From: Fimbriiglobus ruber | Lineage (GTDB): Bacteria; Planctomycetota; Planctomycetia; Gemmatales; Gemmataceae | Reading direction: 5' to 3' | Length of the DNA: 64,000 nucleotides | Assembly: GCF_002197845.1 (NCBI RefSeq) | Contig: NZ_NIDE01000017.1 | Coordinates: 1,038,712-1,102,711 of the forward strand | Part shown: in pieces, positions 6,484 to 21,898 of the stretch | How the letters are laid out: the number at the start of each line of letters is the position of its first letter | Numbering within the stretch: the stretch's first letter is position 1 | Position numbers and translations under genes: made by a program | The notes under the pieces: generated by a model | The model's input: the letters and a program-made list of their open reading frames with translations, nothing else | Database searches by the model: none | Told to the model about the DNA's origin: nothing

Positions 6484-9400
6484 TTGCGTACCTCACGCAC
6501 TCAACTGCTGGCGCCCCCACATGCCGGGGTCATTCATGCCACGTGTATACCCTTCGTAATCTGCCTGTTGCTGCTCGGCACGAGTACGCGGCAGGTGTCG
6601 GCGGCCGAACTCGACCTGCCCTACAAGGTCGGCGTCGGCAAAGTCGACATCACGCCTGCCCACCCGATCCGGCTGAACGGGTTCGGCTTCCGTCGCACCG
6701 AATCGGCCGGTACTTACCAGAAGATCTGGGTGCGGGCACTGGCCATCAAGCCGGCCGACCAGCCGCCGGTCGTTCTGCTGACGGTCGACGTACTCGGCAT
6801 CCCGGCCGACGTGTACGGGGAACTCGTCCGCCGGTTGGGGAAGGACGGCCTGAGCCGGGAGCGGCTCATGATCGCTGCCACGCACACGCACACCGGACCA
6901 ATGCTCACCGGGGCGAACCCGACCCTTTTCGGCATGCCGATCGCGAAGGACCAGCAGCAGCACATCGACCAGTACACGGCCGTTTTCGTGAACAAGCTCG
7001 AAGAGGCCGCCCGCGCCGCGCTCAAAGACCTGCGCCCGGCGCGGCTGGAGTGGGGCGTCGGGTCGGTGGGGTTCGCGATGAACCGGCGGACCAAGGGCGG
7101 CGTGGTCGACCACGACTTGCCGCTGCTCGTCGTTCGCGGCGCCGACAAGGAAATTCGGGCCGTCTACCTGAACTACGCTTGCCACGCCGTCACCCTCTCC
7201 GAGAACAAGATCGGTGGGGACTGGCCCGGGTATGCCGGGGCCGCTCTCGAAGACGCACTTCCCGGGGCGACAGCCCTCGTCGCGGTCGGCTGCGGGGCGG
7301 ACCAGAATCCCAATTCGGGCGTGACCGGCGCCAAGGAGGACGTGGCCGCCGCGCAGGGCCGCACGGTCGGGGCCGAGGTGCGCCGCCTTGTCGCCAGCCC
7401 GCTGACTGAAGTCCGCGGCCCGATCACCACCCGACTCACGACCCTCGACCTCCCGCTCGCGGCCTTGCCCACCCGCGCCGAGTGGGAGCGCCGGGCCCAG
7501 AAGACCGACTACCTCGGCAACCACGCCCGCGTCAATCTGGCCCGGCTCGACCGTGGCGAGAAACTGTCGACTTCGATCTCGTACCCCGTCCAGACGTGGG
7601 CATTCGGTGACTCGCTGGCCATGGTCCACCTGGCCGGCGAGGTGGTCGTCGATTATTCCCGCCGGCTCAAGGCCGAACTCGATGGCCGTCGCGTCTGGAC
7701 GACCGCTTACGCGAACGCCGCCCCGTGCTACATCCCGAGCGAGCGCGTCCTCAAGGAAGGCGGGTACGAGGGCGGCGGCGCAATGTGGGCTTACGACCAG
7801 CCCGCGCCCTTCGCACCCGGCCTGGAAGACAAGATCGTCGCGGCCGTAACGGGCCAGATCGGAAAGACCTTCGCGGCCACGTTTAACGCCAACAAGACCG
7901 GCGGCACCCGCCCGCTCTCCCCGCACCAGTCGCTCGCGCTCATGCGGTCGCGGCCCGGCACGCGGGTCGAACTGGTCGCGGGCGAACCGCTCGTCGCCGA
8001 CCCGGTCGCCCTCGCGTTCGGGCCGGACGGGAAGGTCTGGGTTGCCGAGATGGGCGACTACCCGAGCGGCCGTACTGACGGCCAGTTCGACCCGGGCGGC
8101 CGCGTCGTCGTACTCCAAGATCGCGACGGCGACGGCACGCTGGACACCTCGACCGTCTTCCTCGACAAGCTCCCGTTCCCCACCGGCCTGCTGCCGTGGC
8201 GTAATGGCGTGTTGGTCTGCGCCGCCCCGGACATCCTTTACGCCGAAGACACCGACGGCGACGGCAAAGCCGACAAGGTCACGAAGCTCTACTCCGGCTT
8301 CGGCACGCAAAACTACCAGGCGCGCGTGAACAGCCTCCAGTATGGGTTGGACGGCTGGGTCTACGGCTCGTGCGGCCTGTTCGGCGGGAACATCCTCTGC
8401 CACCGTACCGGCAAGACGGTCGCACTCGGCGACCGCGACTTCCGCATCAAGCCCGATACCGGCGATCTCGAACCCGTCACCGGCCGGACCCAACAGGGCC
8501 GCGTCCGCGACGACCAGGGGAACTGGTTCGGCTGCGACAACGGCACACTGATCCGCCACTACGCGATGGACGACCACTACCTCCGCCGGAACCCGGCCGT
8601 GGCCTTTCCCAACGGCAGCGTCGGCATCCTCGACGGCGACCCGCGACACCTGTTCCCGCTGAAGGCCGACGCCCAGCGGTTCGCCCTGTCCGGGCCGCCG
8701 GACACCGTGACCGCCGCGTGCGGCGTCGGGATCTACCGCGACGACCTGCTCGGGCCGGGCTTCGCCGGCAACTCCTTCACCTGCGAGCCGGTCAACCTGC
8801 TCGTCCACCGACGGCAACTGCACCCTCACGGAACCACGTTCACCGCCTCCCGCGCGGCCGACGAGACGGCGGGCGAATTCCTCGCTTCGACCGACCCGTG
8901 GTTCCGCCCGGTCCACGCCGTCACCGGGCCGGACGGCGGCATCTGGGTGGCGGCCATGTACCGCTTCCTCATCGAACACCCCCGTTGGGTGCCGCCCGCC
9001 GAGTTGGCGAAGATCGACCCGCGGGCCGGAGCCGGCCTGGGCCGGATCTACCGCGTCTGCCCGGAGGGCCGACCCCTCCGCCGGTGGGAGCGGCTCGACA
9101 AGTTCGACACGGCCGGGTTGGTCGAAGCGCTGGACAGCCCGAACGGCTGGCAGCGCGACGCCGCGATGATGCAACTCGTCTGGAAGGCCGACCCAAAGTC
9201 GGTTCCCGGACTCGAAAAGCTCCTGACCGGCTCCCCTCATCCGCTCGCCCGGCTCCAGGCTCTTTGCACGCTGGACCAACTCGGCCGCCTGACGCCCGCC
9301 ACTATCACAGCCGTGCTGGGCGACAAAGATCCTGCCGTTCGCCGGCACGCGGTCCGCACGGCGGAAGCGCGCTTCGCGGACGATCGTTCCCTGGCCCCCG

Positions 9401-12012
9401 CCGTCGCGAAATTAGCGGCCGACCCCGACGCCCAGGTCCGCCTCCAGGTGGCCTACTCGCTCGGCGCCTGGACCGACCCGCGCGCGGGCGAGGTGCTGGC
9501 CCGCATTGCACTCGCGTCTCAAGACGATCCTTACCCCACGGCCGCCGCGGTCAGCAGCCTGACCGCGACCAACTTGCCGATCTTCGCGACAACGGTCTTC
9601 CAGTCGGCCGGTCCGGCCGGCCCCCCGCCGGCATTGGTCCGCAACTTCCTCGCCACGGCCGCCGGCGCCGACTCCGGTACCGCCTTACCCGCCCTACTGG
9701 GCGTGGTGACGAAGCCGACAGACGGGGCGTTTCGTCCGTGGCAACTGACCGCGGCCGTCGGCGCCCTGGACGCGCTCGAACGGCGCGGCCAACCGTGGGC
9801 GAAACTCCCGGCCGACACTCAGGCGTCGCTCGCTCCGGTCGTTACATACGCCCGCAAAATCGTGGACACGGACGCGACACCAGACACCCTGCTCGCCGCG
9901 ATTCCGCTCCTCGCCCACGACCCGACATTCCTCGCGGCCGACGTGAAACGCCTCGCCGGATTGCTCGCGGCCACCCGCCCGGTCCCGGCCCAGACTGCCG
10001 CCCTCACAGCCCTGGCGCGGGTACACGACGCTGCCGTACCACCGGTGCTGATCGCCGCGTGGTCAGGTGCGTCTCCCGCCCTTCGTGGCCGCATCATCGA
10101 CACCCTCCTGGCCCGGCCCGACTGGACAACGGTCCTGCTCACGGCGGCCGAGAAGGGAACGATCCCGCTGGGCCAAGTCGACGCCGGCCGGCGGCAAGTG
10201 TTGGCTGCCCACCCCGACGCAGCGATCCGCGCCCGGGCCGATAAGCTGCTGGCTGGCGGCTCCGACCCGAACCGGGTGAAAGTCATTGAGGCGTCCAAAC
10301 CCGCCCTGGCCCTCGAAGGAGACCGAACGCGCGGCAAGGCGGTGTTCGCCCGGGTCTGTGCGGCCTGCCACCTCGTCGACGGCGTCGGCACGACCGTTGG
10401 CCCGGACCTGACGGCACTGGCGAACAAAACGCCCCTGTACTTCCTGACCGAGATCCTCGACCCGAACCGCAACCTGGATTCCCGGTACGCGGAGTATTGG
10501 GCGACAACTACGGACGGTCGGACCGTGTCCGGGGTGTTGGCCGCCGAGACCGCCACCGGCGTCACGCTCCGCGGCCAACAAGGGAAGGAAGAAACCATCC
10601 TCCGGACGGACCTCGAATCCCTCCGCGGCACCACCAAATCGCTTATGCCGGAAGGACTGGAAAAAGACCTCACGCACCAAAACCTGGCCGACCTGTTGAC
10701 TTACCTGACGTCGACCGATCGGCCGCACAAGGTGCTTGCGGGGAACGCCCCGGCCGAGATCGTCGCGCGGGACAAGAAGCTCACCCTCCCGGCGGCGCGG
10801 GCGTTCGTATACGGCGGCGAGATCACGTTCGAGTCGCAATTCCAGAACATCGGCTATTGGCACACGGAAGGCGATGCCGCAGTCTGGAAGGTGAAGCTCG
10901 ATGCGGCGGCCGAGTTCGATGTGTACCTGGACTACGCCTGCCAAGCCGACGCCGCCGGCAACACCTTCGCCCTCGACGGGGCAGCCGCTCCCGTGCGCGG
11001 CAAAGTTCCCTCGACCGGGGGTTGGGACAAGTACACGCTCTGGAAACTCGGCACGGTGCGGCTGCCGGCGGGGAGTAACCGGCTCACGGCCCGCCCGGAC
11101 GGTCCCGTACGGTCTGCCCTGTTGGATTTGCGCACGATCTACCTCGTGCCGGCCGGCACCCGCCCCACGACCGAGACGACACCCCCAGAAGAGCCGTCGC
11201 TCGCCCCGGCAGAACTCGCGCGACTGTTGCTCACCTCGACAACCCTGGCCGCCCGCCGCGCGAGTCTCTTTCGGCAGGCGGTGCCGCAGGCCCATCTCGT
11301 GATCCAGGCCATGACTGTCGACCTACCCGCGGGCGACGCGGAGGAGGAATACCGCCGCATCCCGGCCGTCTGGCAAGTGGCGATCGCGGCCGGTCGGGCA
11401 AATGACACCGCCGTTCTCCGCGGAATACTGGACGTCAGCCTACCCAAGCCGGGCGACCCACTCCGCGATTGGCAGGCGGTGGTCCTCGGCGGCGGAGTCG
11501 TGAACGGCTTGAGCCAAAAGGGACTGTGGCCGACCGCGCGGATCGCGGAACTGCTCAAGGACAACGCCCCGCTCACGACCCAGTGGCAGGCCATGCTGAA
11601 GCAGACCCACGCGATGGCGGACGCCGAACGGGTTCCGGCCGGCACCCGGTACGACGCGCTCCGCCTGGTCGCGCTGGACGGCTGGGACGCAGCAGGTCCG
11701 CAGCTGACGAAGTACCTGGCCAAGTCGGCGAACGCGGAACTCCAGATGGGTGCGGTGAGCGGATTGGCGGACGTGGAACGACGGGAGGTTGCCACGCTGC
11801 TGGTGAAAGCGCTACCCGACCTGACGCCGTACAATCGCGGGCTGGCGATCGCCGGTTTATTGCGAACGCCGGACCGAGCCGCGGCTGTCGTCGCCGGTCT
11901 GGAGGCCAAAGCGATCGATCCGAAGTGGCTGGCCCCCGAGCAGCAAGCCGAGTTGCGGAAGCACCCGGACGCGGCCGTCCGCGACCGCGCCGCCCGGATT
12001 CTCGGGCCGTAA
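6484..12012 (+). CDS. Ceramidase-like / PVC dehydrogenase / HEAT / cytochrome c fusion
   Basis: An 1842-residue exported protein. The TTG start is supported by GGAGGTGA six bases upstream, and residues 1-41 contain a signal peptide. Residues about 45-480 resemble neutral/alkaline ceramidases (VGVGKVDITPAHP, then THTHTGP at 133-139). Residues about 487-850 form the beta-propeller of PVC-type membrane-bound dehydrogenases (ALAFGPDGKVWVAEMGDY). Residues about 870-1270 are HEAT-like helical repeats. Residues about 1275-1425 carry a haem-c site, CAACH at 1292-1296, with GPDLT and a downstream Met. Residues about 1430-1560 look like a CBM/jelly-roll, and the rest is helical. The domain order propeller-HEAT-haem is standard in Planctomycetes; the ceramidase-like head is less usual. 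Likely periplasmic electron-transfer or hydrolase activity on an unknown substrate. Confidence 0.85.
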   Translation: MRTSRTQLLAPPHAGVIHATCIPFVICLLLLGTSTRQVSAAELDLPYKVGVGKVDITPAHPIRLNGFGFRRTESAGTYQKIWVRALAIKPADQPPVVLLTVDVLGIPADVYGELVRRLGKDGLSRERLMIAATHTHTGPMLTGANPTLFGMPIAKDQQQHIDQYTAVFVNKLEEAARAALKDLRPARLEWGVGSVGFAMNRRTKGGVVDHDLPLLVVRGADKEIRAVYLNYACHAVTLSENKIGGDWPGYAGAALEDALPGATALVAVGCGADQNPNSGVTGAKEDVAAAQGRTVGAEVRRLVASPLTEVRGPITTRLTTLDLPLAALPTRAEWERRAQKTDYLGNHARVNLARLDRGEKLSTSISYPVQTWAFGDSLAMVHLAGEVVVDYSRRLKAELDGRRVWTTAYANAAPCYIPSERVLKEGGYEGGGAMWAYDQPAPFAPGLEDKIVAAVTGQIGKTFAATFNANKTGGTRPLSPHQSLALMRSRPGTRVELVAGEPLVADPVALAFGPDGKVWVAEMGDYPSGRTDGQFDPGGRVVVLQDRDGDGTLDTSTVFLDKLPFPTGLLPWRNGVLVCAAPDILYAEDTDGDGKADKVTKLYSGFGTQNYQARVNSLQYGLDGWVYGSCGLFGGNILCHRTGKTVALGDRDFRIKPDTGDLEPVTGRTQQGRVRDDQGNWFGCDNGTLIRHYAMDDHYLRRNPAVAFPNGSVGILDGDPRHLFPLKADAQRFALSGPPDTVTAACGVGIYRDDLLGPGFAGNSFTCEPVNLLVHRRQLHPHGTTFTASRAADETAGEFLASTDPWFRPVHAVTGPDGGIWVAAMYRFLIEHPRWVPPAELAKIDPRAGAGLGRIYRVCPEGRPLRRWERLDKFDTAGLVEALDSPNGWQRDAAMMQLVWKADPKSVPGLEKLLTGSPHPLARLQALCTLDQLGRLTPATITAVLGDKDPAVRRHAVRTAEARFADDRSLAPAVAKLAADPDAQVRLQVAYSLGAWTDPRAGEVLARIALASQDDPYPTAAAVSSLTATNLPIFATTVFQSAGPAGPPPALVRNFLATAAGADSGTALPALLGVVTKPTDGAFRPWQLTAAVGALDALERRGQPWAKLPADTQASLAPVVTYARKIVDTDATPDTLLAAIPLLAHDPTFLAADVKRLAGLLAATRPVPAQTAALTALARVHDAAVPPVLIAAWSGASPALRGRIIDTLLARPDWTTVLLTAAEKGTIPLGQVDAGRRQVLAAHPDAAIRARADKLLAGGSDPNRVKVIEASKPALALEGDRTRGKAVFARVCAACHLVDGVGTTVGPDLTALANKTPLYFLTEILDPNRNLDSRYAEYWATTTDGRTVSGVLAAETATGVTLRGQQGKEETILRTDLESLRGTTKSLMPEGLEKDLTHQNLADLLTYLTSTDRPHKVLAGNAPAEIVARDKKLTLPAARAFVYGGEITFESQFQNIGYWHTEGDAAVWKVKLDAAAEFDVYLDYACQADAAGNTFALDGAAAPVRGKVPSTGGWDKYTLWKLGTVRLPAGSNRLTARPDGPVRSALLDLRTIYLVPAGTRPTTETTPPEEPSLAPAELARLLLTSTTLAARRASLFRQAVPQAHLVIQAMTVDLPAGDAEEEYRRIPAVWQVAIAAGRANDTAVLRGILDVSLPKPGDPLRDWQAVVLGGGVVNGLSQKGLWPTARIAELLKDNAPLTTQWQAMLKQTHAMADAERVPAGTRYDALRLVALDGWDAAGPQLTKYLAKSANAELQMGAVSGLADVERREVATLLVKALPDLTPYNRGLAIAGLLRTPDRAAAVVAGLEAKAIDPKWLAPEQQAELRKHPDAAVRDRAARILGP

Positions 12013-12262: not shown

Positions 12263-15133
12263 ATGCGGATGCGACTGTTGCTTTCCGTGCTGGCCGCCGC
12301 CCTCACTGCCGCCGTAGCCCCCGCCGCCGGCCAACGGTTCGCCCTCTGCGTCGGCGTCAACGAATACGAAAACGCTACCCTCCCCGGGCGCGCCTACGCC
12401 GAGGCCGACGCCACCGCACTCGCCGGCACGTTCCGCGGTGTTGGATACCGAGTCACACTCGTGACTTCCGGTGCCGGGCAACTCGACCCGACGAAAGCCC
12501 CGACCCGGGCGAACATCACCGCCGCCCTCACGTCCCTGCTTGCCGACCGTAAGCCGGACGACCTGATCGTCGTCGCACTCTTCGGCTACACCGTGCAGCC
12601 CAAGAACGACTCCGACTGCTATTTCTGCCCGCGGGACGCGAACCCTAGCCAACCAAATGCGCTGGTGTCTTTCACCGACCTGTCTCGACAACTCGGCCAC
12701 TGTCCGGCCGGGGCCAAGGTGCTGCTCGCCGACGCCGGTAGTGCTACCGCGTCCCCGGCCGGCGTGTTCGCGTTGTTCGGGTGCGCGCCCGGCGAGCGGG
12801 CGTATGAACACACCGAATTGAAGCACGGCCTGTTCGCATACCACCTCCTGACGGCTATGAATGCGGGAGGCCGGGATGTCATCGACTTCGATACGTTGGC
12901 CGCCCATGTCTGCCGGAAGGTGCCCGCGACGGCGGCCCGGCTGTTGGGAGCGGGCAAGACCCAGACGCCGCTACCGAAAGTGGCAGCCAGACCGGCGCCG
13001 GTCTTACTCGCCCGTGCGGACATTGAATTGCGGGCGGACTGGGACCAGGTAGAGGCACGCAGGGAACGGAGTGAACGCCCGAAAGACTTCGTAAAGAAAG
13101 TGACCGGTGAGAGGTTACCGGCCTGGAAAAAAGCAGCCGAACAAGGGGCCGGGCTCGGGATGTTGTTTTATGCGAAATGCCACGAAATCGGCAGCGGCGT
13201 TGACCAGGACAATAAAGCGGCAGTCGGGTGGTATCATCGAGCCGCGGATCTTGGCGATACGACCGCGATGATCAATGTGGGGCTTGCCTACAAGGAAGGC
13301 CTTGGTGTCGAGCGGGACGAAAAGCAAGCCGTGGCGTGGCTCGCTCGAGCGGCCGTGCTGGGTGAACCGAACGGGATGGAGCAGCTGGCTGGTTGTTACA
13401 TGATGGGTACCGGGGTGGAAAAAAGCGAGAAAGAGGGCGTGGCCTGGTTCCGCAAGGGAGCCGCCCTCGGTTCGCCGCAGTCGATGTACGATCTGGGCGT
13501 TTGCCTACTGAACGGGACCGGGGCGGCCGTAGACGCGACGCAAGGCGTCGCGTGGTTCCGCAAGGCCGCCGCGTTAGGCTTTGCGCCCGCGATGTCCGGC
13601 TTGGGAAAGTGTTACGTAGAAGGAATTGGGGTGGAGAAAGACGCGACGCAAGGTGTCGATTGGCTCCGCAAGGCAGCTGATTTGAACGATCCGGACGCGA
13701 TGATGGATATGGGCACTTGCTACACGAACGGCGTCGGGGTGGAGAAAGACGCGGCGCAAGCCGCCGTGTGGTTTCGCAAGGCGGCCGAGTCAGGAAGTTC
13801 CGAGGCGATGTTTTACCTGGGTGGTTGTTATCGAAAGGGCACCGGCGTCGAGAAAGATTCAAAGGAAGCGGTCGCATGGTTCCGCAAAGCGGCCATGTTG
13901 GATTACCCGCCGGCGATGAGTGCCATCGGGGCGTGCTATGCGAACGGCGAAGGTGTGCCGAAGGACGAGAACGCGGCCGCGGCGTGGGCCCGCAAGGCGG
14001 CCGCATTGGACGAGCCGCAGGCCATGTATTTTCTGGGCAACTGTTACAGGGAAGGTACCGGAGTCGAAGCCGATATGAAAGAAGCCGCCATGTGGTATCG
14101 CAAGGCGGCAGACAGAAACGAGCATCGCGGAATGTGCAATCTGGGCCTTTGCTACGCGAATGGCAATGGGGTCGTGAAAGATTTGAACCTGGCGATGACG
14201 TGGTTCCGCAAGGCAGCCGCGCAGGATGACGCTCGCGCGATGACGTGCCTGGCTTACTGTCATGCCTGCGGCTACGGGGTGGAACGAAATCTTGAGGAGG
14301 CAGTGGCGTGGTACCGCAAGGCGGCCGACCGGAACGACACCCAGGCGATGGGCAGCCTTGGGGCGTGCTACGAGGTCGGAGCCGGGGTCACGAAAGACGC
14401 GAAGCAAGCGGCCGAGTGGTACCGCAAGGCGGCCGAACACGACGAACCATACGCGATGACGAGGCTGGGCATGTGTTATGAAGCCGGTGCCGGGGTCGCG
14501 AAAGACCCGAAGCAGGCAGCCGAGTGGTATCGCAAGGCGGCGGAAAAGGACGAACCGTACGCAATGAACAGCCTGGGCCTCTGTTACGCGAACGGCTCCG
14601 GGGTCACGAAAGACCCGAAGGAAGCCGTGCATTGGTACCGCCAGGCCGCCGCCCAGAACCTGCCCCGGGCGATGACCAACCTCGGCGTCTGTTACGCCAA
14701 CGGCTCCGGGATCGAAAAGAACTCGAAGGAAGCGGTGGTCTGGTACGAGCTGGCGGCGACCTTCAGTGATCCCGAGGCGATGGCGAACTTGGGCTTCTGC
14801 TATGCCAACGGCGCCGGGGCTGATGCGAATCCGGCGAAGGCGGTCGCGTGGTTCCGGCGGGCGGCCGCCCTCAACCACCCGCGGGGCATGACCGGCCTGG
14901 GCATCTGTTACGGCAACGGCACGGGCGTCGACCGGGACGCGAAGGAAGCCGTGGCGTGGTTCCGCAAGGCCGCCGCCCTGGACGACCCGGCCGCGATGAC
15001 CCGCCTGGGGTTCTGCTACGAACACGGTCTCGGCGTAGAGAAAAATACCCCGGAAGCCGTCGCGTGGTATCAAAAGGCGGATCGAGCGGGAGACGCGCGG
15101 GCCAACGCCCGGCTTAAGGAACTCGGGGAATGA
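12263..15133 (+). CDS. Caspase-like (inactive) + Sel1-repeat exported protein
   Basis: A 956-residue protein. The ATG at 12263 is preferred over GTG at 12260 because both paralogues begin at the same MRxR signal peptide. Residues 1-24 are a signal peptide. Residues about 25-230 have the caspase-like (peptidase C14) fold: FALCVGVNEY, DATALAGTFRGVGY, a position where family members have the catalytic His in a GHG motif (here GYT, Tyr109), and a D-A-C position that reads D-A-G (Gly159). Both catalytic residues are therefore missing. LFGCAPGERAYE and LKHGLFAYHLL are retained. From about residue 285 to the end there are roughly 18 Sel1 repeats of 36 residues (WYRKAADLND-type). Such repeats form superhelical scaffolds for protein partners. 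Probably periplasmic. First of three tandem paralogues. Confidence 0.87.
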   Translation: MRMRLLLSVLAAALTAAVAPAAGQRFALCVGVNEYENATLPGRAYAEADATALAGTFRGVGYRVTLVTSGAGQLDPTKAPTRANITAALTSLLADRKPDDLIVVALFGYTVQPKNDSDCYFCPRDANPSQPNALVSFTDLSRQLGHCPAGAKVLLADAGSATASPAGVFALFGCAPGERAYEHTELKHGLFAYHLLTAMNAGGRDVIDFDTLAAHVCRKVPATAARLLGAGKTQTPLPKVAARPAPVLLARADIELRADWDQVEARRERSERPKDFVKKVTGERLPAWKKAAEQGAGLGMLFYAKCHEIGSGVDQDNKAAVGWYHRAADLGDTTAMINVGLAYKEGLGVERDEKQAVAWLARAAVLGEPNGMEQLAGCYMMGTGVEKSEKEGVAWFRKGAALGSPQSMYDLGVCLLNGTGAAVDATQGVAWFRKAAALGFAPAMSGLGKCYVEGIGVEKDATQGVDWLRKAADLNDPDAMMDMGTCYTNGVGVEKDAAQAAVWFRKAAESGSSEAMFYLGGCYRKGTGVEKDSKEAVAWFRKAAMLDYPPAMSAIGACYANGEGVPKDENAAAAWARKAAALDEPQAMYFLGNCYREGTGVEADMKEAAMWYRKAADRNEHRGMCNLGLCYANGNGVVKDLNLAMTWFRKAAAQDDARAMTCLAYCHACGYGVERNLEEAVAWYRKAADRNDTQAMGSLGACYEVGAGVTKDAKQAAEWYRKAAEHDEPYAMTRLGMCYEAGAGVAKDPKQAAEWYRKAAEKDEPYAMNSLGLCYANGSGVTKDPKEAVHWYRQAAAQNLPRAMTNLGVCYANGSGIEKNSKEAVVWYELAATFSDPEAMANLGFCYANGAGADANPAKAVAWFRRAAALNHPRGMTGLGICYGNGTGVDRDAKEAVAWFRKAAALDDPAAMTRLGFCYEHGLGVEKNTPEAVAWYQKADRAGDARANARLKELGE

Positions 15134-15236
15134 CGGCTCGCGCGTGGCCGTCTGCCGCGCACAGTCATCGACGCCCGCCGAGATACCAACCGCCGAATTT
15201 CTGTTCTCCTCCTCTCTATCCCGACGAGGCCAAACG

Positions 15237-18200
15237 ATGCGGACGCGAGTGTTGCTCTCCGTGCTGGCCGCCGCCCTCACTGCCGCCGTAGCCCCCGCCG
15301 CCGGCCAGCGATTCGCCCTGTGCGTCGGCGTCAACGAGTACGACAACGCCGCGCTGCCCAAACTCGCCTACGCCGAGAACGACGCGACCGCCCTGGCCGA
15401 CACCTTCCGCGGCGTCGGGTATCACGTCACCCTGCTCACCCCAGCGGTCGGCCACGTCGACTCAACGAAAGCCCCGACCCGGGCGAACATCGCCGCCGCC
15501 CTCGCCACCCTGGTCGCCGGCCGCCAACCGGACGACCTGGTCGTCGTGGCGTTCGTCGGCCACGGCGTCCCGTTCCCTAACGACCCAGACTACTACTTCT
15601 GTCCGCAAGACGCGAACCCACGCCCGGAGCAGGCGAACACATTGGTATCGCTGGCCGACCTGTATCGGCAACTCGGCCGGTGCGGGGCCGGGGTCAAGGT
15701 GCTACTCGCCGACGGCGGCCGGACCGACCCCGCCGCGGGCCACAAGCGCGAGCCGAACGACGTGCGGGACCGCGTACCCCCGGCCGGCGTGTTCGCACTA
15801 TTCGGGTGCGCGCCCGGTGAGCGGGCGTATGAACATGCCGAATTGAAGCACGGTCTGTTCGCACACCACCTCCTGACGGGCTTCAAGGCGGCCTGCCAGG
15901 ACACCGTCGACGTCGATGCGTTGGCCGCCCACGTTTGTCGGGAGGTGCCTATGGCGGTGACCCGATTGATGGGAGCAGGCAAGACCCAGACGCCGACGCC
16001 GAAAATGGCGGGCGGGGGCGAAACGTCGCCCGAGTTGCTGACCCGCGCGGACATTCAGTTACTGGCGGACTGGAGTACGCGGGAAGCGCTTTGGGCACAG
16101 GGCGTCAGTGGCGCGGACTATGTGAAAAAGACCGCCCCCGACCGCATCGCGGCCTGGAAGGAAGCGGCCGAGCGTGGGGCCGGGTTTGGGATGTTCCTGT
16201 ACGCGAAATGTCTCGACACCGGCAGCGGCGTTAAGCAAGACGCGAAGGCGGCCGCCGCGTGGTATCTGCGGGCGGCGAACCTCGGCAATTCCGTGGCGAT
16301 GGTCAATATCGGGAGTTGCTACGCGAACGGCCGGGGCGTGGCGCGGGACGAACGGAAAGGTGCGGTCTGGTACCACAAAGCCGCCGACCTCGGGGAAGCG
16401 TCGGCGATGGCCGGACTGGGCTACTGTTACGAAAGTGGCCGCGGGGTGGCCAAAGACGCGACGGCGGCCGCGGACTGGTACCGCAAGGCGGCCGACCGCG
16501 GGGACAAGTCGGCGATGGTGTGCCTGGGGATCTGTTACGAAACCGGGCGGGGTGTGAAACAGAAGGCCGCCAAGGCCGTGACGTGGTATCGCAAAGCCGC
16601 CGTGCTGAACGACGCGACCGCACAGACCAATCTGGGGCGGTGTTACCTGGAAGGAATCGGGGTGAAGCGAGACGCGAAAGCCGGAGTGGAGTGGTGTCGC
16701 AAAGCCGCCGACCTCGGGGAAGCGGCCGCGATGACCTGCCTGGGCTCCTGTTACAAAACTGGTTCGGGCGTGGCGGAGGACGCCGAGGAAGCCGTGGCGT
16801 GGTACCGCAAGGCCGCCGACCTGCGCGACGCGACGGCGATGCACAACCTGGCCGGTTGTTACCTCGAAGGGGCCGGCGTCGAGAAGAACGCGACGGCGGC
16901 CGCGGAGTGGTTCCGCAAGGCGGCCGCGCTGTCCGAGCCGTCGGCGATGAACAATTTAGGCGCGTGTTACCAGACCGGTACCGGAGTCAAGCAGGACGCG
17001 AAGACTGCCGTGGCGTGGTTCCGCAAAGCCGCCGCGCTTAAAGATCCCGGGGGCACGTTCAACCTGGGCGTTTGCTACGCGAAGGGCCTCGGCGTCGAGA
17101 AGAGCGAGAAGGTGGCGGTGGCGTGGTTCCGCAAGGCGAGCGCGCTGAACCACCCGCGGGCCATGACCGCCCTCGGCATTTGTTATGTGGAAGGCGCCGG
17201 AGTGGAGGCCGACGAGAAGGCGGGCCTGGAGTGGTTCCGCAAGGCCGCCGCGGCGGACGACCCGCACGCCCTGCTCTGCCTGGGAAAGTGCTACATGGAA
17301 GGCACCGGGGTCGACGTGGACGAAAAAGAAGCCGCGGCGTGGCTCCAAAAGGCGGCCGACCTGAAGGAGCCCGAGGCCATGTACGACATGGGCTACTGTT
17401 ACGCCCACGGCGCCGGGGTCCGTCAGGATATGGCGGAAGCCGCGGCGTGGTACCGCAAGGCCGCCGACCTGAACGGACCCGAGGCCACGTACTGCCTGGG
17501 GTACTGCTACGAAGTCGGCATCGGCGTCGGAAAAGACCCCGATCAGGCGGTGGTGTGGTATCACAAGGCCGCCGACCTGAACGTGGCGATCGCCATGACC
17601 AAGGTCGGGGTCGGCTACGAGACCGGCGTCGGGGTGGACCAGGACGCGAAGGAAGCCGTCGCGTGGTACCGCAAGGCCGCCGCGGCGAACGAGCCAAAAG
17701 CGACGACCCGCCTGGGGCTCTGCTACGCAAAAGGCTTCGGCGTGAAACCGGACGTGAAGCAGGCGGTCGAGTTGTTCCGCAAAGCGATCACGAAGGACGA
17801 TCTCGAGGCGTTGACGAATCTGGGGCTCTGCTACGCGCGGGGCGCGGGGGTTGAGAAGGATCTCACCGAGGCGGTGGCGTGGTACCGCAAGGCCGCCGAC
17901 CTGAACGAACCCCAGGCGATGTACCACCTGGGAACGTGTTACGAGGCCGGCGCCGGTGTGAAGAAGGACGCGAAGCAGGCGGTCGCGTGGTACCGCCAGG
18001 CGGCCGAAAAGAATGAGCCGTATGCGATGACGAACCTGGGCCTCTGTTACGCGAACGGCGTCGGGGTCGCGAAAGACCCGAAGGAGGCCGTGCATTGGTA
18101 CCGCCAGGCCGCCGCCCAGAACCTGCCCCGGGCGATGACCAACCTCGGCGTCTGTTACGCCAACGGCTCCGGGGTCGAAAAGAACCCGAAGGAAGCCGTG

Positions 18201-18599
18201 GTCTGGTACGAGCTGGCGGCGACTTTCAGTGACTCCGAGGCCATGGCGAACTTGGGATTCTGCTATGCCAACGGCTCCGGAGCCGATACGAACCCGGCGA
18301 AGGCGGTCGCATGGTTCCGGCGGGCGGCCGCACTCAACCACCCGCGGGGCATGACCGGCCTGGGCATCTGTTACGGCAACGGCACGGGCGTCGACCGGGA
18401 CGCGAAGGAAGCCGTGGCGTGGTTCCGCAAGGCCGCCGCCCTGAACGACCCGGCCGCGATGACCCGCCTGGGGTTCTGCTACGAACATGGCCTCGGCGTG
18501 GAGCGTGATGCGAAAGAAGCGGCCGCGTGGTATCGGAAGACCGAGCAGGGAGGAGATTTGCAAGCCCGAAAAAGACTGGAAGGACTCGGTAAAGAATAA
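15237..18599 (+). CDS. Caspase-like (Cys lost) + Sel1-repeat exported protein
   Basis: A 1120-residue paralogue of the preceding gene. The start is placed at the ATG of MRTRVLLSVLA, matching the other two copies. The signal peptide and caspase-like domain (about 25-240) align closely with the first copy. Here the catalytic His is kept (G108-H109-G110), but the cysteine position in the D-A-C block reads D-G-G (Gly161), so peptidase activity is unlikely. About 23 Sel1 repeats of 36 residues follow from about residue 290. The signal-peptide coding region and the last 450 bp (18023-18473) are nearly identical to the first copy (14560-15010), which points to recent duplication or gene conversion. 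Confidence 0.87.
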   Translation: MRTRVLLSVLAAALTAAVAPAAGQRFALCVGVNEYDNAALPKLAYAENDATALADTFRGVGYHVTLLTPAVGHVDSTKAPTRANIAAALATLVAGRQPDDLVVVAFVGHGVPFPNDPDYYFCPQDANPRPEQANTLVSLADLYRQLGRCGAGVKVLLADGGRTDPAAGHKREPNDVRDRVPPAGVFALFGCAPGERAYEHAELKHGLFAHHLLTGFKAACQDTVDVDALAAHVCREVPMAVTRLMGAGKTQTPTPKMAGGGETSPELLTRADIQLLADWSTREALWAQGVSGADYVKKTAPDRIAAWKEAAERGAGFGMFLYAKCLDTGSGVKQDAKAAAAWYLRAANLGNSVAMVNIGSCYANGRGVARDERKGAVWYHKAADLGEASAMAGLGYCYESGRGVAKDATAAADWYRKAADRGDKSAMVCLGICYETGRGVKQKAAKAVTWYRKAAVLNDATAQTNLGRCYLEGIGVKRDAKAGVEWCRKAADLGEAAAMTCLGSCYKTGSGVAEDAEEAVAWYRKAADLRDATAMHNLAGCYLEGAGVEKNATAAAEWFRKAAALSEPSAMNNLGACYQTGTGVKQDAKTAVAWFRKAAALKDPGGTFNLGVCYAKGLGVEKSEKVAVAWFRKASALNHPRAMTALGICYVEGAGVEADEKAGLEWFRKAAAADDPHALLCLGKCYMEGTGVDVDEKEAAAWLQKAADLKEPEAMYDMGYCYAHGAGVRQDMAEAAAWYRKAADLNGPEATYCLGYCYEVGIGVGKDPDQAVVWYHKAADLNVAIAMTKVGVGYETGVGVDQDAKEAVAWYRKAAAANEPKATTRLGLCYAKGFGVKPDVKQAVELFRKAITKDDLEALTNLGLCYARGAGVEKDLTEAVAWYRKAADLNEPQAMYHLGTCYEAGAGVKKDAKQAVAWYRQAAEKNEPYAMTNLGLCYANGVGVAKDPKEAVHWYRQAAAQNLPRAMTNLGVCYANGSGVEKNPKEAVVWYELAATFSDSEAMANLGFCYANGSGADTNPAKAVAWFRRAAALNHPRGMTGLGICYGNGTGVDRDAKEAVAWFRKAAALNDPAAMTRLGFCYEHGLGVERDAKEAAAWYRKTEQGGDLQARKRLEGLGKE

Positions 18600-18788
18600 G
18601 AACCCGTGCATCGATACGTCGTGTGCAGTTCCGAAACACCCGTCCGTTTCTGCAGTCCATCCCGGGACGCGCTTCGGGGCTGCGTTCGGGCGAGTGGGCG
18701 TTCAACCTGACCGTGTTCGTTCATACCACACCATGGCCTCGGCGATATCCGCCTCTGCCTCTGGCGTGATTATCAGCGGCAGACTCAC
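18600..18788 (-). pseudogene. Truncated ParE/RelE-type toxin
   Basis: A GTG at 18788 overlaps the antitoxin stop (GTGA), the classic arrangement for this type II module. The first 28 codons read as the start of a ParE/RelE toxin (SLPLIITPEAEADIAEAM, then VWYERTRSG), after which a TGA at 18702-18704 ends the frame. Weak ParE-like sequence (ERSPEARP, then a basic segment ending in LILYR) continues in another frame down to about 18600. The toxin is therefore frameshifted and decayed while the antitoxin is intact. Confidence 0.6.
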
Positions 18789-19009
18789 GACGACTTCTTC
18801 AAACGAGCCTTGACTTCCTCCCAGCTGCTTCCGGCCTTCGGGCTCGCTTCGTAAGCGGCGATGCGCCGCTGCAAGTCTTGAGTTTGCGATTCGGTTAACG
18901 GAAAGCTTGCTTCGTCGGAGACAATGCTGTCCCAGATTTTCTCAACGAGGAGAATGCGTTGGGTCACACTGAGTTGGTCAATGCCGAGCGATTTCAACGT
19001 CGGTGACAT
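18785..19009 (-). CDS. Addiction-module antitoxin (TIGR02574-type)
   Basis: A 74-residue protein from the ATG at 19009, with GGAGG five bases upstream; a longer frame extends upstream but has no ribosome site. It matches the small antitoxins called putative addiction module component: LSVTQRILLVEKIWDSIV, LTESQTQDLQRRIAAYE and the C-terminal SWEEVKARLKK. In complete modules the protein neutralises a ParE/RelE-type ribonuclease or gyrase toxin and autoregulates its operon. The toxin gene that overlaps its stop is broken here, so this is an orphan antitoxin lying between two Sel1 genes on the opposite strand. Confidence 0.8.
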   Translation of the reverse strand: MSPTLKSLGIDQLSVTQRILLVEKIWDSIVSDEASFPLTESQTQDLQRRIAAYEASPKAGSSWEEVKARLKKSS

Positions 19010-19273
19010 CGAGTCCTCCAAAAACTGTCCGCGTCCAATTGATGATACCCCACACCGGACCGGCCAGAAAGAGAAAGACCACGCGACATGACGGTGTGCG
19101 AGGCGATTCGCAAATCCGAGGCACGCTCGGTTTCCCTCACCATTGACAAGGTTCACCGACGCCAATTCGTCTAGCTTTTCGGGGCTCGCTCGTGGCAACA
19201 TGGGGCCGCAAAGGCCAGCCGGGGTCGGCTGCTTTGATGACCCGTTTCCTCTCCGTCCCCATGAGATCGAGCG

Positions 19274-21898
19274 ATGCGGACGCGATTATTGTTCTCCGTC
19301 CTGGCCGTCACATTCGCTGCTCCGATGGCGGCCGCCGCCGATGAGCGATGCGCCCAAGTGACCGGCGGGGTCGGAACCGCGAACGTTCCGTGCGCGAGCT
19401 GTCTCGACGCCAGCGCGGCGGCCGAGCGCAACGTGAGAGCGGCCGCCGCGTGGTGTGGTCGAACGGCTGACCGTGTTCGGGCCGTCACGATGGTCGGCGT
19501 CGGCGATTGCCACATGCGCGGCATCGGGGTGAAGAAAGACGCGCGTGCGGCGGTGGCGTGGTATCGCGAGGCGGCCGCACTCCGTCACCCGGGGGCGATG
19601 ACCCGGTTGGGTGTCTGTATCGCCAGCGGCGCGGGCACCGACGCGGACGCGCAAGAAGCCGTCGCATGGTACCGCAAAGCCGCCGCCCTGAATGATGCAG
19701 ACGCCATGAATCGCCTGGGGAACGCCTACATGACGGGGGCCGGCGCAGAGCGGAATGTAGGCGAGGCGGTGAGATGGTTTCGCAAGGCCGCCGACCTCGA
19801 CGAACCACTGGCGATGACGAATCTGGGGATCTACTACACGAACGGGATCGGCGTCGAGACGGATCACCAGGAAGCGGTGAAATGGTTTCGCAAAGCCGCC
19901 GACCGCAACAATCCGGAAGCGATGTGTCGCCTGGGGAATGCCTACATGAAGGGAGCCGGCGTGGAGCCGAATGTGGGCGAGGCGGTGAAATGGTTTCGCA
20001 AGGCGGCCGAACTCAACGAGCCACAGGCGATGACGCATCTGGGGTTTTGCCTCGCGAAGGGCTTCGGCGTCACAATGGATGTCCGGGCGGCGGCCGAATG
20101 GTATCGCAAAGCGGCCGAACTCAATGACATCGATGCGATGATTTTCCTGGTGCAATGTTATCAAAACGGCATCGGCGTCGAGAAGGATACTCGCGCGGTC
20201 GTTGCGTGGTATCGCAGGGCCGCCGACCTGAATGAACCTTGGGCCATGGTCAACCTCGGGGTTTGCTACACGAACGGCACCGGAGTGAGACAGGACGCGA
20301 AAGAGGCGGTGATCTGGTTTCGCAAAGCGGCCGCACTCGGCCACCCGGGAGGCATGACCAATTTGGGCCTGTGTCGGGCGTCCGGTCTGGGTGTCGAGCG
20401 TGATGAGCGCGACGCCGTTGCGTTGTTCCGCAAGGCGGCCAGCCTGAACGATCCGGAGGCCATGAAAAACCTGGGCGTCTGCTACGAGAACGGCACCGGG
20501 GTCGCGCGGGACATGAAGGAAGCCGTCGCGTGGTATCGGAAGGTGGCCGAGTTAAAGAACCCGTACGCCATGACCCGCCTGGGAGTGTGTTACAAAGAAG
20601 GCACGGGTATCCAGAAAGACGCGAAACAAGCGGTCGAGTGGTTCCGCGGGGCGATCGCGCTGGATGAGTCGACGGCGATGACCTGTTTGGGTATCTGCTA
20701 TGCAGATGGCACCGGTGTTGAGCGAAACGCCAAAGAAGCCGCCATGTGGTACCGCAAGGCCGCAGACCTGAATGATTCAGACGCCATGGTCCGATTGGGT
20801 AGTTGTTTTCAAACGGGTGCCGGCGTGCCGAAGGACGCGACTGAAGCGGTCGCGTGGTATCGCAAGGCGGCCGACTTAAAGGACCCGTACGCCATGACCC
20901 GCCTCGGGGTCTGTTACGAGTACGGTACCGGGGTTGAGAGAGACGCGAAAGAGGCCGCCGCGTGGTATCGCAAGGCGGCCGTCCTGAACGACCCGGAAGG
21001 CATGAAAAGCCTGGGCATCTGCTACGAGAGCGGCACCGGGGTCGCGCGGGACATGAAGGAAGCGGTCGCGTGGTACCGCAAGGCCGCCGACTTAAAGAAC
21101 CCGTACGCCATGACCCGCCTGGGCGTCTGTTACGAGTACGGTACCGGGGTTGAGAGAGACGCGAAAGAGGCCGCCGCGTGGTACCGCAAAGCGGCCGACC
21201 GGAGCGAACCGGAGGCGATGGCCAGCCTGGGAACCTGCTATTTTTATGGCGTCGGGGTGGAGAAGGACGAGAAACAAGCCGTCGCGTGGTATCGCAAAGC
21301 GGCTGGTTTGAATTACCCGGGTGCGATGAACTACCTGGGCAAGTGTCGGGCATCCGGTCTGGGTGTCGAGCGTGATGAGCGCGACGCCGTTGCGTTGTTC
21401 CGCAAGGCGGCCAGCCTGAACGATCCGGAGGCCATGAAAAACCTGGGCGTCTGCTACGAGAACGGCACCGGCGTCGCGCGGGACATCAAAGAAGCCGTCG
21501 CATGGTACCGCAAAGCGGCCGACCAAAACAACGCCCACGCCATGACTTGCCTGGGCGTCTGTCACGGGAATGGGGCCGGAGTCGAGCGGGACATGAAGGA
21601 GTCCGTCGCGTGGTACCGCAAGGCGGCGAGCCTGAATTATGCGGATGCCATGACCCGCCTCGGCGTCTGCCTTGAGTCCGGCACTGGGATCACGCAGGAC
21701 ACGAAAGAGGCGGTCGCGTGGTACCGCAAGGCGACCGACCTCAACGAAGCGTGGGCGATGTACAAACTGGGTGCCGCGTACGAGGACGGCACGGGGGTCG
21801 AGAGAAGTATCAAGCAAGCCGTGACGTGGTATCGGAAGGCTTTCCAGGCTGGGTACCCTCAAGCCAAGGAAAGTCTCCGCCGCCTCGGCGAAGAATAG
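19274..21898 (+). CDS. Sel1-repeat exported protein without caspase-like domain
   Basis: An 874-residue third paralogue. The signal peptide (MRTRLLFSVLAVTFAAP and an AAA-type site) matches the other two copies, but the whole caspase-like domain of about 250 residues is absent and degenerate Sel1 repeats begin by about residue 40. About 22-23 repeats of 36 residues follow. Blocks within the gene are near-identical at spacings that are whole multiples of 108 bp: 20371 and 21343 are 972 bp apart, and 20881 and 21097 are 216 bp apart. The array has grown by internal duplication. Likely an exported scaffold. The gene's 3' end overlaps the convergent ATP-grasp gene by about 40 bp. Confidence 0.85.
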   Translation: MRTRLLFSVLAVTFAAPMAAAADERCAQVTGGVGTANVPCASCLDASAAAERNVRAAAAWCGRTADRVRAVTMVGVGDCHMRGIGVKKDARAAVAWYREAAALRHPGAMTRLGVCIASGAGTDADAQEAVAWYRKAAALNDADAMNRLGNAYMTGAGAERNVGEAVRWFRKAADLDEPLAMTNLGIYYTNGIGVETDHQEAVKWFRKAADRNNPEAMCRLGNAYMKGAGVEPNVGEAVKWFRKAAELNEPQAMTHLGFCLAKGFGVTMDVRAAAEWYRKAAELNDIDAMIFLVQCYQNGIGVEKDTRAVVAWYRRAADLNEPWAMVNLGVCYTNGTGVRQDAKEAVIWFRKAAALGHPGGMTNLGLCRASGLGVERDERDAVALFRKAASLNDPEAMKNLGVCYENGTGVARDMKEAVAWYRKVAELKNPYAMTRLGVCYKEGTGIQKDAKQAVEWFRGAIALDESTAMTCLGICYADGTGVERNAKEAAMWYRKAADLNDSDAMVRLGSCFQTGAGVPKDATEAVAWYRKAADLKDPYAMTRLGVCYEYGTGVERDAKEAAAWYRKAAVLNDPEGMKSLGICYESGTGVARDMKEAVAWYRKAADLKNPYAMTRLGVCYEYGTGVERDAKEAAAWYRKAADRSEPEAMASLGTCYFYGVGVEKDEKQAVAWYRKAAGLNYPGAMNYLGKCRASGLGVERDERDAVALFRKAASLNDPEAMKNLGVCYENGTGVARDIKEAVAWYRKAADQNNAHAMTCLGVCHGNGAGVERDMKESVAWYRKAASLNYADAMTRLGVCLESGTGITQDTKEAVAWYRKATDLNEAWAMYKLGAAYEDGTGVERSIKQAVTWYRKAFQAGYPQAKESLRRLGEE

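What the first reader, a model, noticed from the sequence alone, without database searches (positions are those of the whole stretch)
12263..18599. Two tandem caspase-like/Sel1 proteins with stepwise loss of the catalytic dyad
In the first protein both catalytic positions are changed (His to Tyr109, Cys to Gly159). In the second the GHG histidine (H109) is kept but the Cys is Gly161. The surrounding fold motifs are preserved, so the domain was kept as a non-enzymatic module joined to 18-23 Sel1 repeats. This suggests pseudo-caspase scaffolds in the cell envelope.
Basis: partly seen in the sequence, partly recalled or inferred. Interest (0 to 1): 0.6.

Follow-up and report, generated by a model that had tools for sequence, protein, structure and literature searches.

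The report
Dead caspase-like domains on Sel1 scaffolds
A planctomycete carries a small family of exported caspase-like proteins in which some copies keep the cutting residues and others have lost one or both while the fold is still under selection; this is a clear example of a kind of 'dead protease' already described in other bacteria.

Summary
Both proteins are Peptidase_C14 plus Sel1 arrays above Pfam cut-offs. At the catalytic positions gene 1 (12263-15133) has Tyr109/Gly159 and gene 2 (15237-18599) has His109/Gly161. No other Cys or His takes their place, and AlphaFold2 gives confident caspase folds (pLDDT 94 and 91). The genome holds four more close paralogues: three with an intact His-Cys dyad, one with His/Arg. 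Gene 1 also lost 15 residues just after the Cys position. The third neighbour (19274-21898) is the same gene type with the caspase domain missing. Codon models give omega about 0.12 on dead versus 0.11 on live branches and reject neutrality for the dead clade and for gene 1, but not for gene 2's own short branch. 'Stepwise' (Cys first, then His) is the most parsimonious order for these two genes. 'Cell-envelope scaffold' is inference, from a signal peptide only. The kind is known: pseudo-orthocaspases are published with exactly these Y-G and H-G pairs, Planctomycetes are reported with 64% dyad conservation, and Sel1 is a listed partner domain. New member of a known kind, with an unusually complete decay series in one genome.

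The parts
12263..15133 (+). Gene 1 (P0001, 956 aa): signal peptide - p20 (C14) without catalytic dyad - Sel1 array
12263..12328 (+). Signal-peptide-like N-terminus of gene 1 (residues 1-22)
   Evidence: hydropathy; sequence; near-identical DNA to gene 2 (synonymous distance 0.09 over codons 1-24)
12335..12973 (+). p20 / Peptidase_C14 domain of gene 1 (residues 25-237)
   Evidence: Pfam 60.6 bits; AF2 pLDDT 93.6; Foldseek to MALT1/metacaspases
12587..12589 (+). Tyr109 (TAC) at the catalytic His position
12737..12739 (+). Gly159 (GGT) at the catalytic Cys position; 15 residues present in gene 2 right after it are missing here
13157..15094 (+). Sel1 repeats of gene 1 (18 Pfam stretches)
15237..18599 (+). 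Gene 2 (P0002, 1120 aa): signal peptide - p20 with His kept, Cys lost - Sel1 array (longest ORF starts at GTG 15144; ATG 15237 gives the signal peptide)
15309..15998 (+). p20 / Peptidase_C14 domain of gene 2 (residues 25-254)
   Evidence: Pfam 72.3 bits; AF2 pLDDT 91.0; VIA-align Z 23.6
15561..15563 (+). His109 (CAC), catalytic His kept
15717..15719 (+). Gly161 (GGC) at the catalytic Cys position (TGC in three paralogues)
15726..15770 (+). Loop after the Cys position (residues 164-178), low confidence in the model of gene 2 and deleted in gene 1
16188..18545 (+). Sel1 repeats of gene 2 (22 Pfam stretches)
19274..21898 (+). Gene 3 (P0003, 874 aa): same signal peptide and Sel1 array, p20 domain absent (residues 1-31 match gene 2 residues 1-31; residues 32-100 match gene 2 residues 314-382)

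Best explanation
These are exported pseudo-orthocaspases: caspase-fold p20 domains that can no longer cut, each fixed to a long Sel1 solenoid. They arose by duplication in a family confined, as far as searched, to this genome. The ancestor had a His-Cys dyad; the Cys was lost at or before the common ancestor of genes 1 and 2, and gene 1 later lost the His and the loop after the Cys position. Shown: residues, fold prediction, paralogue series, purifying selection on the dead clade. Inferred: no peptidase activity, export to the periplasm, and use as a binding module. In gene 2 and the His/Arg paralogue the cleft and both pocket Asp residues remain, which would allow binding of a basic peptide without cutting it. 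In gene 1 the cleft is dismantled, so the fold probably serves only as a structural or docking part of the Sel1 scaffold.
For: Residues and Pfam. Three paralogues with intact H109/C161 and one with H109/R161 in the same genome. Outgroup G034 C14-Sel1 protein with H and C. Clade of genes 1 and 2 supported 99/97 and 89/90. Pocket Asp (gene 2 D49 and D159) invariant in all 10 aligned proteins. Confident caspase folds. Codon models: omega 0.122 dead against 0.108 live, p(difference) 0.60; omega=1 rejected for the dead clade (p 1e-44), gene 1 (p 3e-5) and the His/Arg paralogue (p 2e-8). Signal-peptide-like N-terminus in all six paralogues and gene 3.
Against: Gene 2's tip branch: omega 0.50-0.65, not distinguishable from neutral, and weakly higher than the rest (p 0.03/0.016). 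Gene 3 has lost p20 entirely, so the Sel1 part can do without it. Ends of genes 1 and 2 were homogenised (synonymous distance 0.09 and 0.22 against 0.58 in p20), so recombination may distort branch estimates. The dead branches include time before the loss. In the wider family the first pocket Asp is kept in only 11 of 20 non-HC p20 domains. No partner, expression or localisation data.
Confidence: 0.62

Rival explanations
1. The dead copies regulate the live ones: they pair with, or compete for substrates of, the intact-dyad paralogues, as the dead caspase homologue c-FLIP does with caspase-8 (c-FLIP role recalled).
For: Three intact paralogues share signal peptide, p20 and Sel1 architecture in the same genome; dead p20 under constraint about as strong as live p20; in gene 2 and the His/Arg copy the cleft and pocket Asp are kept.
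Against: No interaction evidence; orthocaspases lack the p10 part through which initiator caspases dimerise (PMC7889975 abstract and passages); gene 1's cleft is degraded; live copies lie at other loci, not in the window.
Confidence: 0.25
2. Decaying duplicates: the Sel1 arrays are what is selected; p20 is a relic on its way out and gene 3 shows the endpoint.
For: Gene 3 lacks p20; gene 1 has extra loss at the cleft; gene 2 tip branch compatible with omega 1.
Against: Omega=1 rejected for the dead clade, gene 1 and the His/Arg copy; no general rise of omega on dead branches; both p20 domains are predicted to fold with high confidence.
Confidence: 0.15
3. The p20 domains still have a different catalytic use (for example His/Asp chemistry without Cys).
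For: His109 and Asp159 kept in gene 2 and the His/Arg copy.
Against: Gene 1 lacks the His; no alternative nucleophile conserved among the dead copies only.
Confidence: 0.04

Closest known systems
Bacterial pseudo-orthocaspases (PMC6426788, passages and section 17; PMC7889975, abstract and passages), notably SyOC of Synechocystis with a Tyr-Gly pair
   Same: p20 domain with His and/or Cys replaced; Y-G and H-G both listed in PMC7889975; acidic pocket kept; some fused to protein-interaction repeats (TPR)
   Different: Here in a planctomycete, with a signal peptide and 18-22 Sel1 repeats, and with intact, half-lost, fully lost and p20-less paralogues in one genome
Bacterial metacaspases with Sel1 repeats (PMC3501461, section 8 and passages)
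   Same: C14 + Sel1 in 6.0% (40) of the sequences; only 64% of Planctomycetes sequences had an intact dyad
   Different: That survey gives totals; the passages I read do not describe this family or its order of losses
c-FLIP (recalled; named as having an inactive caspase domain in a passage of PMC8195603)
   Same: Dead caspase fold beside live homologues
   Different: Animal, cytosolic, has death effector domains (recalled); no evidence of pairing here

Membership tests
Peptidase_C14 / orthocaspase p20 fold | p20 domain above family cut-off and caspase fold | tested here: met
   Pfam 60.6 and 72.3 bits vs 21.4; Foldseek to MALT1, metacaspases, caspases for both models; VIA-align Z 23.6, rmsd 2.8, 218 aligned for gene 2
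Active orthocaspase (peptidase) | Catalytic His-Cys dyad | tested here: not met
   Y109/G159 and H109/G161
Pseudo-orthocaspase | p20 with one or both dyad residues replaced | tested here: met
Pseudo-orthocaspase | Two Asp of the acidic specificity pocket kept (PMC6426788 section 17) | tested here: met
   D49 and D159 (gene 2 numbering) invariant in alignment A1, which holds genes 1 and 2
Pseudo-orthocaspase | No peptidase activity | not testable with these tools
   needs protein
Sel1 repeat protein | Array of about 36-residue Sel1 repeats above cut-off | tested here: met
   18 and 22 Pfam stretches, exact 36-residue spacing
Exported envelope protein | Signal peptide | tested here: inconclusive
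   Hydrophobic segment within residues 1-24 only, no other 19-residue window above 1.6; no signal-peptide predictor available
c-FLIP-like regulator of live paralogues | Complex with a live homologue | not testable with these tools
   no complex prediction or interaction data

The most novel reading that the evidence does not exclude
A bacterial cell keeps a graded set of exported caspase-fold proteins on Sel1 scaffolds - live, Cys-less, dyad-less and p20-less - in which the Cys-less copies hold basic peptides without cutting them and so restrain or guide the live ones in the periplasm.
Probability: 0.2. Interest if true: 0.55.

Novelty: new member of a known kind. Interest (0 to 1): 0.36.

Why it matters
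Pseudo-orthocaspases are common but their function is almost unknown. One genome with three live and three dead close paralogues of the same layout, plus a copy without the domain, gives a natural set for testing what the dead domain does: same kind of signal peptide, same repeats, different catalytic state. The codon test indicates that dead p20 domains can be about as constrained as live ones.

Tried and rejected
Compensating catalytic residue: looked for Cys/His unique to dead copies near the cleft; C122 is shared with intact paralogues, C119 and H146 are in gene 1 only among the six and not at the dyad columns; rejected.

One Cys-loss event for all three dead copies: not decided. The 26-row tree groups the His/Arg copy with genes 1 and 2 (87/67). 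In the 13-row tree AU tests reject neither grouping it with them (p 0.385) nor placing it outside the other five (p 0.288), and the best tree puts it weakly with the live copies (62/48).

Defence-system reading: PADLOC gives only a 29.2-bit 'caspase' match for gene 2, none for genes 1 and 3. I did not pursue it. NCBIfam gave no match over its cut-offs.

Orthologues for a cleaner selection test: none close found. The six-paralogue group was matched at E <= 1e-20 in 1 of 294 phylum genomes, that one being the window's own (query the second part of p20 plus linker). In the family search of 95 genomes the best hit outside the own genome was 45% identical. A genome-contig scan gave 12 loci, best 46%; its output says that records of the window's own or a very near genome may be left out.

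Papers: searches 'orthocaspase'+'Planctomycet' and 'caspase'+'Gemmata'+'Sel1' found 0 papers each; 'Peptidase C14'+'Sel1'+'Planctomycetes' found one, PMC3501461. Searches gave nothing nearer. Read: PMC3501461 section 8 and passages; PMC6426788 section 17 and passages; PMC7889975 outline with abstract, and passages; PMC8195603 passages. Other papers: search listings only.
Full report
What is there. Window 12263-15133 and 15237-18599 encode proteins of 956 and 1120 aa: a signal-peptide-like start, a Peptidase_C14 (p20) domain and a long Sel1 array. The ORF lister starts gene 2 at GTG 15144, but ATG 15237 gives nearly the same first 25 residues as gene 1. HMMER aligned a profile of ten family members to MALT1 with the GHG and Asp-x-Cys columns on MALT1's GHG and DMC.

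Fold. AlphaFold2 models of residues 20-400 of gene 1 and 20-420 of gene 2 have mean pLDDT 93.6 and 91.0. In both, the His column follows the strand at model residues 82-88 and the Cys column follows the next main strand (134-140 in gene 2, 132-137 in gene 1), the usual place of the dyad in caspase folds (general knowledge). Foldseek finds MALT1, metacaspases, caspases and Sel1 structures for both. VIA-align gives Z 23.6, rmsd 2.8 over 218 residues to MALT1 for gene 2; I did not run it for gene 1. The loop just after the Cys position is of low confidence in gene 2 and absent from gene 1 (15 residues).

The family in this genome. PF00656 finds 8 places in the genome. Aligned, 5 of the 8 have His-Cys, and 3 do not: gene 1 (YG), gene 2 (HG) and a protein on contig 14 (H/Arg). 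Six of the eight form one close group with signal peptide + p20: genes 1 and 2, the contig 14 copy, and three intact-dyad copies on contigs 4 (two) and 17. Sel1 repeats are found in the frames of all six. A ninth p20-like ORF (contig 19, L063) reads Lys/Gly. One search counts 10 matches in this genome; I examined 9 distinct ORFs.

Gene 3. The next gene, 19274-21898, has no C14 domain. Its 5' end matches gene 2 DNA (74% over 109 bases, E 1.8e-15 in a small database). In protein it matches gene 2 residues 1-31 and then, in the same frame, residues 314-382, so the p20 domain is missing from between them. As outgroups carry p20-Sel1, loss in gene 3 is likelier than gain in the others.

Order of losses. 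Outgroup p20-Sel1 proteins (G034, G018, G071) have His-Cys. Genes 1 and 2 are sisters (99/97, 89/90) and both have Gly at the Cys column, so Cys first and His later is the shortest order. The His change needs one base (CAC to TAC), and so does TGC to gene 2's GGC. Whether the contig 14 copy shares the Cys loss is open (see Tried and rejected).

Selection. On 216 codons of p20 from six paralogues, pairwise NG86 synonymous distances are 0.46-1.50. My own codon-model script (GY-type, F3x4) gives one omega of 0.115; live 0.108, dead 0.122 (p difference 0.60). Omega=1 is rejected for the dead clade (p 1e-44), gene 1's branch (omega 0.165, p 3e-5) and the contig 14 branch (0.06, p 2e-8). The gene 2 tip has omega 0.50-0.65, not different from 1 (p 0.62-0.80) and higher than the rest (p 0.03/0.016). 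A second topology gives the same picture. Caveats: dead branches include time before the loss, and genes 1 and 2 show signs of gene conversion at both ends: synonymous distance 0.09 in the signal peptide and 0.22 in the last five repeats, 0.58 in p20, while earlier repeats match poorly.

Relatives. 40 stretches (39 of unnamed relatives, one of the own genome) gave 53 p20 ORF rows, of which 50 had both columns; 33 of these 50 read His-Cys. The rest were HN 5, HG 3, RD 3 and one each RC, QS, HV, PS, HF, KG (the KG row is from the own genome). The stretches were taken from the best-scoring part, so this is not a random sample, and rows of low score are aligned less surely. Published figures agree in kind: 84% of bacterial sequences and 64% of Planctomycetes sequences with an intact dyad (PMC3501461 section 8).

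What is known. PMC7889975 (passages) lists Y-G and H-G among the pairs found in orthocaspases and says that SyOC of Synechocystis has Y-G; its abstract reports that deleting it raised tolerance to oxidative stress. PMC6426788 (section 17) reports that the two pocket Asp are kept in pseudo-variants; the matching Asp are kept in genes 1 and 2 as well. PMC3501461 lists Sel1 in 6.0% of the sequences. So the kind is known; the long Sel1 arrays with a signal peptide and the full series in one planctomycete genome are the additions.

Mechanism. Most likely genes 1 and 2 are non-cutting, exported p20-Sel1 proteins. For gene 2 a kept cleft fits holding of basic peptides; for gene 1 the cleft is altered (Tyr for His, Thr for the following Gly, loop deleted) and a structural role fits better. 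These two functional steps are inference. Regulation of the live paralogues is the main rival.

Noticed in passing
window 19274-21898: Third tandem gene is a p20-less version of genes 1 and 2 (signal peptide and Sel1 array kept).
   Followed up: yes
window 12263-12334 / 15237-15308 and last five Sel1 repeats of each gene: Ends of genes 1 and 2 are far more alike in synonymous sites than their middles, which suggests gene conversion.
   Followed up: partly
window 13157-15094, 16188-18545: Nearly every Sel1 repeat carries one Cys in the motif LGxC (16 of 17 and 20 of 21 repeats counted); single, not paired as in Helicobacter Hcp proteins (recalled).
   Followed up: partly
L009:8720-10594 (G000 contig 4): An intact-dyad paralogue ends early and a Sel1 match continues in another frame; frameshift or sequencing error.
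   Followed up: no
L072:3855-7001 (-), L076:1-2991 (+): Related p20 domains without dyad (QS, HG) lie between a protein kinase and TPR repeats; Pfam C14 passes in L076 only.
   Followed up: partly
L044:3355-4629 (-): p20-like domain reading His/Val fused to an FKBP-type isomerase domain; found by the family profile, not by Pfam C14.
   Followed up: no
L090:4099-7742 (+): Tandem pair in a Planctomycetales MAG: one copy with DACR, the next with DAAR at the Cys motif, another live/dead neighbour pair.
   Followed up: no
window 18788-19201 (-): Putative addiction module component (PF09720) between genes 2 and 3 on the other strand.
   Followed up: no
window 6484-12009 (+): 1842-aa protein joining a ceramidase-like N-terminus, DUF7133, HEAT repeats and a cytochrome c domain.
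   Followed up: no
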